The notes under the pieces were generated by a model, which saw nothing but the letters and a program-made list of their open reading frames with translations, searched no databases and was not told the DNA's origin. Shown here piece after piece: positions 42,641-45,373 of a DNA stretch of 64,000 bases. Position numbers and translations under genes: made by a program. This stretch comes from an uncultured Neglectibacter sp. (lineage in GTDB: Bacteria; Bacillota; Clostridia; Oscillospirales; Acutalibacteraceae). The stretch spans positions 1-64,000 of the forward strand of contig CAJFSY010000005.1 of the NCBI GenBank assembly GCA_904419785.1, in the 5' to 3' direction. Position 1 is the stretch's first letter. Each line of letters opens with the position of its first letter.

Positions 42641-43204
42641 ATGAAATTTTACGTGACCCGCCATGGGCAGACTGCTTGGAACCAGCAGAATATTGTCTGT
42701 GGGATAACAGATATCAGTTTGGACGAGACCGGTATGCAACAAGCCCGGGAAACCGCTGAAAGACTGCGGGATATCCATTTGGACCGGGTGATTTGTTCCC
42801 CGTTGCTGCGTGCCCGGCAGACCGCTGAGTTGATCTGCCAGGGGAGAGAGATTCCTTTTTCCGTTGATAAACGGGTGAGGGAGCAAAATTACGGCATTTA
42901 CGAAGGGGCTTCCCGTTTTGACTCGGGGTTTTTAGAAAACAAAAAAATGTTTGCCGTCCGCTATCCGGGAGGCGAGTCTCAAATGTCCACCGCCCGCCGG
43001 GTGTATGAGTTCTTAGAGGATACAGCCCGAAAATACCCGGGAGAGAGCGTGCTGGTAGTTTGCCACGGAGGTGTCTGCCGGGTGATCGAGAGCTATTTCC
43101 ACGATATGACCAACGAAGAGTTTTTCCAGTTCAGCATGGGCAACTGCGAGGTGCGGGAATATGACCTGGACTTGCCCCAAGGAGAGGAGGCGGAGACATG
43201 GTAA
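42641..43204 (+). CDS. Histidine phosphatase family protein (phosphoglycerate mutase-like)
   Basis: 187 residues from the ATG at 42641. The catalytic motif TRHGQTAWN is at residues 6-14, with SPLLRARQTAE near 49, an acid/base Glu in REQNYGIYEG and the second His in VVCHGGVCRV. Such enzymes dephosphorylate sugar phosphates or cofactors (CobC/GpmB-like). It overlaps the next gene by seven bases, so the two are translated together. Confidence 0.9.
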   Translation: MKFYVTRHGQTAWNQQNIVCGITDISLDETGMQQARETAERLRDIHLDRVICSPLLRARQTAELICQGREIPFSVDKRVREQNYGIYEGASRFDSGFLENKKMFAVRYPGGESQMSTARRVYEFLEDTARKYPGESVLVVCHGGVCRVIESYFHDMTNEEFFQFSMGNCEVREYDLDLPQGEEAETW

Positions 43205-43467
43205 CGTTTTATGGTTCTCACATTTGCAGTGGCTGCCGGGAGGCGAAAGCGCTTTTTGAGGAAAAAGGCTTTCATGGATATGAGTTTATTGAGATCACAG
43301 AGACCACTGACAATCTGCGGGCGTTTCTGAAATTGCGGGATACCCGTGAGGAGCTGAAAGAGGCCAAAGAAGCAGGCCGCATCGGCATTCCCTGCTTTGT
43401 GCGGGAAGATGGTTCCATCACCCTGGAGGCCCAGGACGTGTTGAAAGAGGCAGGGATTGCCTGTTAA
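43198..43467 (+). CDS. Glutaredoxin-like protein
   Basis: 89 residues with a thioredoxin-like fold: the N-terminal YGSHICSGCREAKALFEEKG holds a CxxC motif (CSGC), and GIPCFVREDG supplies the cis-Pro loop. A second Cys precedes FV in that loop and a Cys ends the protein, so more than one disulfide is possible. Likely a redox carrier for low-molecular-weight thiols or a partner of an unknown enzyme. Translation is coupled to the upstream phosphatase gene. Confidence 0.82.
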   Translation: MVTFYGSHICSGCREAKALFEEKGFHGYEFIEITETTDNLRAFLKLRDTREELKEAKEAGRIGIPCFVREDGSITLEAQDVLKEAGIAC

Positions 43468-43483: not shown

Positions 43484-43512
43484 TTGAATAACGACCTTTT
43501 TCCGATTATAAT
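43484..43512 (+). promoter_or_regulatory. Strong promoter of the NifU-like/GGGtGRT pair
   Basis: TTGAAT (43484-43489), 17-bp spacer, TATAAT (43507-43512), about 70 bases before the first start codon. Confidence 0.8.
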
Positions 43513-43583
43513 GGACACAGATTGGTATTTCGGCCGGCATAACGCCAGACCGAAAGAAATACGAAACCGAAAGGAGTACCAAT

Positions 43584-44276
43584 ATGAACTATTCCCATGA
43601 AGTGGAAAATATGTGCACGGTGAAGAAGGGCCCCCATCATGGTCCCGCTCCCATCCCCGAAGAGGGCAAGTGGGTCAAGTCCTATGAGATTAAGGACATC
43701 TCCGGCCTTTCCCACGGTGTAGGCTGGTGCGCTCCCCAGCAGGGCGCTTGCAAGCTCACTCTGAACGTGAAGGAAGGCATTGTGCAGGAAGCCCTGGTAG
43801 AGACCCTGGGATGTTCCGGCATGACCCATTCCGCCGCTATGGCCGCTGAGATCCTCCCCGGCAAAACCCTGTTGGAGTGCTTGAACACCGACTTGGTGTG
43901 CGACGCTATCAACGTGGCAATGCGTGAGATCTTCAAGCAGCTGGCTTACGGCCGCAGCCAGACCGCTTTCTCTGAAGATGGTCTGCCCATCGGCGCCAGC
44001 TTGGAAGACCTGGGCAAGGGCCTGCGCTCTCAGGTGGGCACCATGTTCTCCACCGGGCTTAAGGGCGTTCGCTACATGGAAATGGCCGAAGGCTATGTCA
44101 TCAAGATGGCTCTCGATGAAGAGGGCGAAGTCATTGGCTATCAGTTCGTCAAGGTGGGCAAGATGCTGGAGGACATTCGTCACGGCGTTTCTCCTGATGA
44201 GGCCTATAAGAACAACATTGGCCAGTATGGCCGGTTCGACGGCGCTGCCAAGTACATCGACCCCAGAGAAGAATAA
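43584..44276 (+). CDS. NifU-N-like iron-sulfur scaffold-type protein (partner of GGGtGRT protein)
   Basis: 230 residues. Cysteines at about 11, 49, 56, 77, 99 and 106 include LGCSGMTHSAAMAAEIL, a pattern like the second Cys region of NifU-N/IscU scaffolds (GCGxAxASSS). C49-C56 (WCAPQQGAC) and C106 could complete a cluster site. The last 80 residues, with VRYMEMAEGYVIKMALDEEG, look like a separate small beta domain not found in IscU. Codons are strongly biased, suggesting high expression. AAAGGAG precedes ATG. The partner gene follows after 30 bases. Family assignment is by motif only; no cysteine desulfurase is nearby. Confidence 0.7.
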   Translation: MNYSHEVENMCTVKKGPHHGPAPIPEEGKWVKSYEIKDISGLSHGVGWCAPQQGACKLTLNVKEGIVQEALVETLGCSGMTHSAAMAAEILPGKTLLECLNTDLVCDAINVAMREIFKQLAYGRSQTAFSEDGLPIGASLEDLGKGLRSQVGTMFSTGLKGVRYMEMAEGYVIKMALDEEGEVIGYQFVKVGKMLEDIRHGVSPDEAYKNNIGQYGRFDGAAKYIDPREE

Positions 44277-44306
44277 TTTTCCCATCGCGATAAGGAGGAC
44301 AAGCAA

Positions 44307-45314
44307 ATGGCTAATGACGTCATGTTTGAAGGCAAAGAAAGAAGAATGCCGAAGATCGAGAAATGCCTGGCCGAATACGGCATCGGCAGCCTGGAAGAGG
44401 CCCGGGAGCTTTGCAACAGCAAAGGTTTCGATCCTTATGATATCGTCAAGGGCGTGCAGCCCATCGCTTTTGAGAACGCCGGCTGGGCTTATACCCTGGG
44501 CTGCGCTGTGGCTATCAAAAAGGGCGTAAAGACTGCTGCTGAGGCTGCTGAAGCCATTGGTATCGGCCTGGAAGCTTTCTGCGTGCCCGGTTCTGTGGCT
44601 GAGCAGCGCAACGTGGGCTTGGGCCATGGCAATCTGGGCGCTATGCTGCTTCGGGACGAGACCAAGTGCTTCGCGTTCTTGGCTGGTCACGAGTCTTTCG
44701 CTGCCGCTGAAGGCGCTATCGGCATTGCCAAGACCGCTAACCGCGCCCGCAAAGAGCCCCTGCGCATCATTCTGAACGGCTTGGGCAAGGACGCTGCTTA
44801 TATTATCTCTCGTATCAACGGCTTTACCTATGTAAAGACTGATTATGATTTCTTCACCGGTGAGCTGAAGGTTGTGGAGACCAAGGCTTTCTCCGACGGC
44901 GAGCGCGCTGCTGTTAAGTGCTATGGCGCCAACGACGTTCTGGAAGGCGTGGCTATCATGCGTGCTGAGGGTGTGGACGTTTCCATCACCGGTAACTCCA
45001 CCAACCCCACTCGTTTCCAGCACCTGGTTGCCGGCACCTACAAGAAGTGGGCTCTGGAGAATGGCAAGAAGTACTTCTCCGTGGCTTCCGGCGGCGGCAC
45101 CGGCCGTACCCTGCATCCCGACAACATGGCTGCCGGCCCCGCTTCCTATGGCTTGACCGACTCCATGGGCCGTATGCATGGCGACGCTCAGTTCGCTGGC
45201 TCTTCTTCCGTGCCTGCTCACGTGGAGATGATGGGCTTGATGGGCATGGGCAACAACCCCATGGTAGGCGCTACTGTGGCTTGCGCTGTTGCTGTGTATG
45301 AAGGCACCAAATAA
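44307..45314 (+). CDS. GGGtGRT protein, conserved protein of unknown function
   Basis: 335 residues, recognised by its motif GGGTGRTLHPDNMAAG, with GGGTGRT at residues 262-268. Other conserved-looking segments are GWAYTLGCAVAIKKG near residue 50, the His-rich GLGHGNLGAML near 108, and a glycine/methionine-rich C-terminus (EMMGLMGMGNNPMVGAT). No catalytic family is evident, and no function is assigned here. It is preceded by AAGGAGGAC. Codon use is extremely biased (GCT, GGC, CTG), as for ribosomal-protein genes, so the product is probably abundant. It appears to be an obligate pair with the NifU-like protein. Confidence 0.85.
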   Translation: MANDVMFEGKERRMPKIEKCLAEYGIGSLEEARELCNSKGFDPYDIVKGVQPIAFENAGWAYTLGCAVAIKKGVKTAAEAAEAIGIGLEAFCVPGSVAEQRNVGLGHGNLGAMLLRDETKCFAFLAGHESFAAAEGAIGIAKTANRARKEPLRIILNGLGKDAAYIISRINGFTYVKTDYDFFTGELKVVETKAFSDGERAAVKCYGANDVLEGVAIMRAEGVDVSITGNSTNPTRFQHLVAGTYKKWALENGKKYFSVASGGGTGRTLHPDNMAAGPASYGLTDSMGRMHGDAQFAGSSSVPAHVEMMGLMGMGNNPMVGATVACAVAVYEGTK

Positions 45315-45344: not shown

Positions 45345-45373
45345 AAAGCGGCTCCTACGGGGGCCGCTTTTTG
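45345..45373 (+). terminator. Terminator after the GGGtGRT gene
   Basis: AAAGCGGC-TCC pairs with GG-GCCGCTTT, followed by TTGTGTT. Confidence 0.8.

What the first reader, a model, noticed from the sequence alone, without database searches (positions are those of the whole stretch)
43484..45314. Highly expressed NifU-like / GGGtGRT pair of unknown function
A near-consensus promoter, strong Shine-Dalgarno sites and ribosomal-protein-like codon bias indicate abundant products, yet neither protein has an established function I can name. One has a NifU/IscU-like Cys pattern plus an extra domain; the other has invariant GGGTGRT. No desulfurase is nearby, so an unusual Fe-S or metal-handling role in anaerobes is a reasonable candidate. 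This is the window's best candidate for an undescribed system.
Basis: partly seen in the sequence, partly recalled or inferred. Interest (0 to 1): 0.75.

Follow-up and report, generated by a model that had tools for sequence, protein, structure and literature searches.

The report
Abundant iron-linked protein pair, function unknown
Two neighbouring genes that travel together in many gut anaerobes make an iron-sulfur-scaffold-like protein and a very strongly conserved partner with no known fold match; they look highly expressed and respond to iron, yet no function was found in print.

Summary
Window 43584-44276 (+) encodes a 230-aa IscU/NifU-fold protein and 44307-45314 (+) a 335-aa GGGtGRT protein (PF14057). 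They have the two highest codon-adaptation values of 61 window ORFs, at ribosomal-protein level, behind a promoter conserved in relatives. The pair is a catalogued, uncharacterised family, not a discovery. Of 391 class genomes 187 have both genes and 197 neither; the 7 exceptions are contig ends, short fragments or a disrupted copy. Order and strand agree in 197 of 197 loci; no other neighbour is conserved. The IscU-like protein keeps three invariant Cys (49, 77, 106), but Cys37-Gly-Asp39 and LPPVK are gone; GGGtGRT matches no solved structure at E <= 0.001. The genome has an ordinary IscS-IscU pair elsewhere. Published data show both proteins higher with iron in a Clostridium and a Bacteroides, opposite to the isc-locus proteins of C. 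difficile. Best reading (0.37): an obligate two-subunit Fe-S complex, probably an enzyme, with the cluster on the IscU-like subunit and GGGtGRT closing the active site. Rivals: iron-replete cluster assembly or carrier; iron/Fe-S reservoir (a ferritin trade-off vanished after family stratification). Side finding: the GGGtGRT 3' end is an integration site for tyrosine-recombinase elements.

The parts
43484..43512 (+). Promoter TTGAAT-17-TATAAT of the two-gene unit
   Evidence: 10 of 12 consensus matches; -10 conserved in relatives, 69 of 78 exact TATAAT
43521..43583 (+). Leader with a 5' stem-loop and a stem that can pair with the bases just before the start codon; Shine-Dalgarno AAAGGAG
   Evidence: RNA fold of 43519-43600 -18.7 kcal/mol, z -2.45; leaders of 67 relatives fold better than mononucleotide shuffles, mean z -1.48, with differing sequences; no Rfam match reaches its gathering score. 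Function not tested
43584..44276 (+). NifU/IscU-fold protein, 230 aa, C49/C77/C106, with its own C-terminal part (about 123-230)
   Evidence: weak NifU_N, 18.6 bits against a cut-off of 22; fold match to IscU, E 9.3e-5; three Cys in 136 of 136 sequences
44307..45314 (+). GGGtGRT protein (PF14057), 335 aa
   Evidence: PF14057 E 1.7e-194, 645.6 bits; model pLDDT 81.7, pTM 0.83
45346..45372 (+). Probable intrinsic terminator: 10-pair stem with TACG loop followed by a T-rich tail
   Evidence: read by eye from the sequence; the automatic scan did not list it
45141..45314 (+). Last 58 codons of the GGGtGRT gene incl. stop: the part that is duplicated where integrative elements have inserted in other genomes
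   Evidence: fragments starting at residues 279-283 in five viral-collection loci and at 270 in one more; tyrosine integrases beside the gene's 3' end or fragment in L126, L131, L135 and L035. No insertion in this window

Best explanation
The pair is an obligate two-subunit iron-sulfur complex, most likely an abundant enzyme of iron-replete fermentative metabolism rather than a cluster-building system. The IscU-fold subunit holds a cluster with Cys49, Cys77 and Cys106, which leaves one iron site without a Cys ligand. The partner GGGtGRT binds over this site; its extremely conserved stretches (GHESFAAAEGA 127-137, ITGNSTNPTRFQH 227-239, GGGTGRTLHPDN 262-273, GRMHxDAQFAG 288-298, PAH 303-305), rich in His, Arg, Asp and Gly and free of invariant Cys, form the substrate pocket, and the 263-300 part becomes ordered only in the complex. 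Shown: pairing, order, fold of the first subunit, Cys conservation, strong expression signals. Taken from papers: higher levels with iron. Inferred: cluster type, physical complex, catalysis.
For: Obligate pairing: 187 of 391 class genomes have both and 197 neither, the 7 exceptions being assembly ends, fragments or a disrupted copy; 8 of 8 in 149 phylum genomes; the same 10 plasmid records; 197 of 197 loci in the same order and strand, median gap 20 bases. IscU fold for the first subunit. Three Cys invariant in 136 of 136. GGGtGRT: 147 of 335 positions at least 99% conserved in 149 rows, and the segments that AlphaFold leaves at pLDDT below 50 are the most conserved (0.96 against 0.83), as expected of loops that fold on a partner or cofactor (inference). 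Codon bias above that of the genome's own IscU and IscS (0.705 and 0.732 against 0.556 and 0.538). Iron response like that of Fe-S enzymes: in C. pasteurianum GGGtGRT 7.1-fold and the NifU-related protein 2.4- and 3.7-fold higher with iron in early phase, as spots of PFOR, hydrogenase and aconitase also are (PMC5395762, section 11 read); in B. thetaiotaomicron the pair is 11- to 12.8-fold lower in iron depletion (PMC10434189, passages).
Against: No reaction, substrate or cofactor is known, and no other neighbouring gene is conserved to point to a pathway. GGGtGRT has no fold match at E <= 0.001, so catalysis rests on conservation alone. The IscU-like model is weak (pLDDT 64.9, pTM 0.46, the other four models 38.9-50.6), and its unordered parts are only slightly more conserved than the rest (0.87 against 0.83). 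No complex prediction could be run. Absence of an invariant Cys in GGGtGRT and an IscU fold also fit a scaffold or carrier. Iron-replete expression does not separate enzyme from store.
Confidence: 0.37

Rival explanations
1. A housekeeping cluster-assembly or carrier system for iron-replete growth: the IscU-like protein is a scaffold that takes sulfur from the IscS encoded elsewhere, and GGGtGRT is a dedicated helper (iron donor, docking factor or transfer chaperone) that passes clusters to the abundant ferredoxin-dependent enzymes of fermenters.
For: IscU fold and Cys63/Cys106 equivalents; the genome has IscS and canonical IscU on contig C3 plus one SUFBD-type gene; in Collinsella the pair lies downstream of sufB-sufD-sufS-sufU, with a transposase between.
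Against: Cys37-Gly-Asp39 and the LPPVK segment, both present in the genome's own IscU, are missing; no desulfurase, chaperone or carrier is a conserved neighbour; codon bias as strong as in ribosomal protein genes; in C. difficile the IscS2 and NifU-family proteins of the isc locus rise in low iron (protein log2 2.69 and 3.83, PMC6311696 passages), the opposite direction to this pair in C. pasteurianum and B. thetaiotaomicron (a comparison across species).
Confidence: 0.3
2. An iron or Fe-S reservoir: the complex stores iron-sulfur units when iron is plentiful and releases them on starvation, in place of ferritin.
For: Strong expression signals; higher with iron; the window's genome has no clear ferritin (best E 5.6e-5); in the class sample a clear ferritin (E below about 1e-17) is in 72 of 194 genomes with either gene and in 113 of 197 without.
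Against: The ferritin trade-off disappears when compared within 17 families (175 of the 391 genomes; Mantel-Haenszel odds ratio 1.2, P 0.84). Such strict conservation over 147 positions is more typical of an active site than of a store (general knowledge). B. thetaiotaomicron has the pair and a ferritin gene, both lower in iron depletion (PMC10434189 passages).
Confidence: 0.17
3. A non-Fe-S metalloprotein pair: the IscU-like subunit binds zinc or another metal, as SufU does with zinc, and GGGtGRT uses its invariant His/Asp/Glu residues for a second metal.
For: SufU is named a zinc-dependent sulfurtransferase in the PDB; many invariant His/Asp/Glu in GGGtGRT.
Against: The iron dependence of the protein levels; fold and profile matches are better for IscU than for SufU; no Cys-Gly-Asp motif.
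Confidence: 0.1

Closest known systems
IscU / NifU N-terminal domain (PF01592, TIGR01999, TIGR03419)
   Same: Fold of the N-terminal half, weak profile matches, Cys77 and Cys106 in register with IscU Cys63 and Cys106 (the second by eye)
   Different: Below the curated cut-offs; Cys37 position is an invariant Gln, Asp39 lost, LPPVK segment lost, extra C-terminal part, followed by GGGtGRT, no desulfurase beside it
GGGtGRT protein family (Pfam PF14057)
   Same: Full-length member, 645.6 bits
   Different: Nothing; no solved structure by sequence and no function found in the papers seen
SufU
   Same: Related fold
   Different: Lacks the Cys-Gly-Asp motif seen in the Collinsella SufU aligned to it; weaker match
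Three-Cys [4Fe-4S] hydro-lyases (aconitase type; recalled, no call)
   Same: Proposed working analogy only: cluster with one open iron site beside a polar pocket
   Different: No such relative appeared in the sequence or fold searches

Membership tests
GGGtGRT protein, PF14057 | Full-length profile match above the gathering score | tested here: met
   645.6 bits against 27, residues 7-332
IscU/NifU scaffold | Curated profile score | tested here: not met
   NifU_N 18.6 of 22 bits; TIGR03419 22.3 of 187.9; TIGR01999 18 of 192.4; SufU model TIGR01994 15.9 of 92.5
IscU/NifU scaffold | IscU fold | tested here: met
   All 13 Foldseek rows at E <= 0.001 are IscU/ISCU or complexes containing it, best E 9.3e-5, TM (target) about 0.5, on a model of modest quality
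IscU/NifU scaffold | Cys37-Gly-Asp39 | tested here: not met
   Cys37 position is Gln53 in 136 of 136; a Cys (C49) lies four residues before
IscU/NifU scaffold | Cys63 and Cys106 | tested here: met
   C77 and C106 in 136 of 136; C106 was matched by eye, the program aligned that segment differently
IscU/NifU scaffold | LPPVK segment (recalled as the HscA recognition site) | tested here: not met
   Present in the genome's own IscU, absent here
ISC/SUF/NIF operon | Cysteine desulfurase gene beside the scaffold | tested here: not met
   No conserved neighbour besides the pair in 40 loci
IscU/NifU scaffold | Assembles and transfers an Fe-S cluster | not testable with these tools
   Needs anoxic biochemistry
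Ferritin-like iron store | Ferritin profile or fold, or replacement of ferritin in genomes | tested here: not met
   No ferritin profile match and none in the 50 best fold rows shown; no within-family trade-off
Obligate gene pair | Neither gene without the other | tested here: met
   187 both, 197 neither, 7 exceptions of 391, all at contig ends, fragments or a disrupted copy

The most novel reading that the evidence does not exclude
The pair is a new class of iron-sulfur enzyme in which an IscU-type scaffold was turned into the permanent cluster-bearing subunit and a protein of unseen fold supplies the rest of the active site, carrying out an unrecognised high-flux step of iron-replete gut fermenters.
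Probability: 0.27. Interest if true: 0.87.

Novelty: new variant of a known kind. Interest (0 to 1): 0.6.

Why it matters
Metaproteome papers keep listing GGGtGRT, several also NifU, in rumen, chicken and human gut (passages); one calls GGGtGRT poorly characterised and highly expressed in vivo (PMC11204068). In the passages seen from all nine held papers that contain the name none gives it a function. An obligate, apparently abundant, iron-responsive pair found in Clostridia, Bacteroidota, Actinomycetota and Vibrio is a tractable open question: one double deletion and one anoxic purification would tell which of three quite different roles it has.

Tried and rejected
Ferritin replacement: the raw association in 391 genomes (odds ratio 0.44, P 7.5e-5; at a stricter ferritin limit 0.48, P 5e-4) vanished within families, so it is not used as support. 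The handle lists behind searches were typed by hand; only 17 families (175 genomes) were entered. Families in which the pair is always present or always absent, and a few small mixed families without any ferritin, were left out.

A solved or viral structural relative of GGGtGRT: none at E <= 0.001 by phmmer, by profile (best E 0.4) or by fold. The Foldseek top rows (phosphofructokinase, later rows CODH) have TM near 0.25 and were not followed. A resemblance of GGGTGRT to phosphate-binding loops of PLP enzymes was considered from memory and dropped: nothing supports it.

A regulatory RNA in the leader: no Rfam family reaches its threshold; stems are present but the sequences differ too much to call a motif.

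Gene neighbourhood: 46 loci were entered; my simple ORF caller kept GGGtGRT in 40. In the other 6, the window included, it did not (in the window a longer opposite-strand ORF took its place; the other 5 were not looked into). Besides the pair no family recurs in more than 5 of the 40.

Integration site: no integrase was seen near the C-terminal fragments of G313, G451 and G506, so these may have another origin.

Papers: searches in the held library found no functional study of either protein. PF14057 as a term gave only unrelated papers. Preprints and papers not held were not searched.

Full report
What is there. The window carries two genes in tandem on the + strand: a 230-aa protein (43584-44276) and a 335-aa protein (44307-45314). 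The second is a full-length member of PF14057, GGGtGRT. The first scores below the curated cut-offs of the four NifU, IscU and SufU models that match it, but a profile of 16 relatives finds a NifU/IscU structure at E 6.1e-5 and its model finds IscU structures by fold at E 9.3e-5.

Expression. The promoter is 10 of 12 and conserved: 69 of 78 relatives' leaders contain TATAAT against 10.6 expected from shuffles, and 48 of 78 a promoter of at least 10 of 12 against 3.25. Measured against seven ribosomal protein genes of the same genome (fetched), the pair has the two best codon-adaptation values of 61 window ORFs, 0.732 and 0.705, level with or above the ribosomal genes. The window's leader folds better than its shuffles (z -2.45); 67 relatives' leaders have a mean z of -1.48 and carry stems of differing sequence, possibly protecting the mRNA (inference).

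Pairing. In 88 loci fetched with GGGtGRT, 87 also hold the NifU-like gene; the one without (L009) begins at GGGtGRT. In a phylum sample of 149 genomes 8 have GGGtGRT and the same 8 have the long NifU-like protein; 14 further genomes give only weak matches (E 6.7e-5 or worse, about 50-75 residues), which I take for ordinary NifU or SufU. In a class sample of 391 genomes GGGtGRT is in 191 and the NifU-like protein in 190: 187 have both, 4 GGGtGRT only, 3 NifU-like only, 197 neither. The exceptions: G479, G298, G155 and G400 are cut by contig ends; G381 and G506 hold only short C-terminal GGGtGRT fragments close to contig ends; in G404 the NifU-like gene breaks off after residue 130 and runs into foreign sequence that I read as a transposase. 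The same ten plasmid-collection records hold both. In 197 loci with both, which include repeats of the same place, strand and order agree in 197, with a median gap of 20 bases; three loci have gaps of 371-430 bases. Patristic distances of the two trees correlate (r 0.88, 149 pairs), as expected of linked genes.

Distribution. The class sample is split almost in half. Elsewhere the pair is on records of Collinsella, Bacteroides, Parabacteroides, Phocaeicola, Persicobacter and Vibrio, so it seems not confined to strict anaerobes (physiology recalled). Of 14 control genomes only Bacteroides ihuae has GGGtGRT.

No genomic context. Around 40 copies nothing but the pair recurs in more than 5. Collinsella has SUF genes upstream beyond a transposase, Parabacteroides a TlpA-like and an OsmC gene upstream and a nitroreductase downstream; neither is general. 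The window's genome has IscS and canonical IscU side by side on contig C3 and one SUFBD-type gene, so the pair is additional to ordinary cluster assembly.

The IscU-like subunit. Among 136 distinct sequences Cys49, Cys77 and Cys106, Gln53, Asp103 and Asp107 are in all, His44 in 135. Cys77 matches IscU Cys63. Cys106 precedes the last long helix as IscU Cys106 does; the alignment program placed that segment otherwise, so this match is by eye. Of the canonical Cys37-Gly-Asp39 the Cys is an invariant Gln and the Asp is lost, and the segment with LPPVK is missing. The extra part is residues about 123-230, poorly modelled between 123 and 169; the whole model is of modest quality.

GGGtGRT. In 149 rows 147 of 335 positions are at least 99% conserved. 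No Cys is invariant in the 16-row alignment; Cys121, 99% in the larger set, is Thr in L006 and L007. The model is good (pLDDT 81.7, pTM 0.83) except 231-235, 263-270 and 272-300, the segments of highest conservation (0.96 against 0.83). The model shows a helical N-terminal part, an alpha/beta part and two C-terminal helices; no solved structure matches at E <= 0.001, nor any viral model, nor any PDB sequence.

Iron. In C. pasteurianum GGGtGRT is 7.1-fold (early) and 2.2-fold (late) higher with iron, the NifU-related protein 2.4- and 3.7-fold early and 1.6- and 2.9-fold late (two spots; PMC5395762, section 11 read). In B. thetaiotaomicron the pair is 11- to 12.8-fold lower in iron depletion (PMC10434189, passages); the name GGGtGRT occurs once in that paper, so nothing is said of its other two species. 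In C. difficile IscS2 and the NifU-family protein of the isc locus are higher in low iron, log2 2.69 and 3.83 for protein and 0.55 and 0.83 for RNA (PMC6311696, passages). Comparing species this way is suggestive, not proof. In another C. pasteurianum study the NifU-related protein is listed at -2.1 in one of two comparisons, with hydrogenase lower in the same column, PFOR in the other and a ferritin in both (PMC4916542, one passage, column headings not seen).

Abundance in communities. Passages in PMC7035244, PMC11204068, PMC12643325, PMC13041051, PMC12101220 and PMC12014591 name GGGtGRT, several also NifU, among detected or differing proteins of gut communities; PMC6043501 lists a 'nitrogen-fixing protein NifU' at 0.28, 1.72 and 1.47 in its table of rumen proteins (passage), but which NifU is not stated. 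PMC12118408 names the B. thetaiotaomicron protein BT_RS00855, a NifU homologue, as the most significantly changed protein among those without RNA change on phage infection (passage).

How it most likely works. An Fe-S store, an assembly system and an enzyme all predict some of this. Against assembly: lost scaffold motifs, codon bias above the genome's own IscS-IscU, an iron response that runs with Fe-S client enzymes, no assembly neighbours. Against storage: enzyme-like conservation and no ferritin trade-off within families (the raw trade-off is explained by lineage). For an enzyme: a three-Cys site on one subunit, a partner with conserved polar loops that are unordered alone. I therefore favour a two-subunit Fe-S enzyme at 0.37, with assembly or carrier at 0.30. 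The cluster, the complex and the reaction remain inferred.

Verdict. It is a catalogued family and the window's copy is an ordinary member, but its function is open, and the non-canonical IscU-like subunit with an obligate partner of unmatched fold makes it a variant worth a direct test.

Noticed in passing
window 45141-45314; L126:3-2145, L130:4672, L131:5001-6763, L132, L133, L134:5001, L135:2977-4695, L035:3217-9066, L118:9143-9295: The 3' end of the GGGtGRT gene is an integration site. Six viral-collection loci have mid-contig C-terminal fragments, five starting at residues 279-283 and one (L130) at 270. Tyrosine integrases lie just downstream of the gene's 3' end or fragment in L126, L131 and L135; one contig (L126/L134) has two copies of the 3' end as a direct repeat; a Ruminococcus (L035) has a roughly 4.8-kb insert with a split integrase, a Fic-type gene and a resolvase. 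C-terminal fragments also occur in Clostridia genomes G313, G381, G451 and G506, where no integrase was seen in the stretches read for G313, G451 and G506.
   Followed up: partly
phage collection (H11-H16): Six of 50,697 phage records, all unannotated human fecal 'Bacteriophage sp.', hold GGGtGRT or a part of it, 2 over at least 80%; stray bacterial contigs or flanks of inserted elements are likely.
   Followed up: no
window 43506-45221, strand -: A 571-aa open frame runs antisense to both genes; most likely a by-product of the strong codon bias of the + strand.
   Followed up: no
window 43198-43467: Small glutaredoxin/Spx-like protein with a CSGC motif just upstream of the pair; its matches are below the curated cut-offs.
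   Followed up: no
window 43521-43583: In close relatives the leader keeps ATTGGTATTT...TACCAAT, so the 5' end can pair with the bases before the start codon; a translation control is possible.
   Followed up: partly
G000:C5:139692-140351 (outside the window): The genome has one SUFBD-type protein (315-aa open frame), perhaps a minimal SUF system beside IscS-IscU.
   Followed up: no
PMC9942572: A software-based list of putative virulence factors in Clostridium innocuum includes GGGtGRT (passage); given its distribution this looks like an annotation artefact.
   Followed up: no
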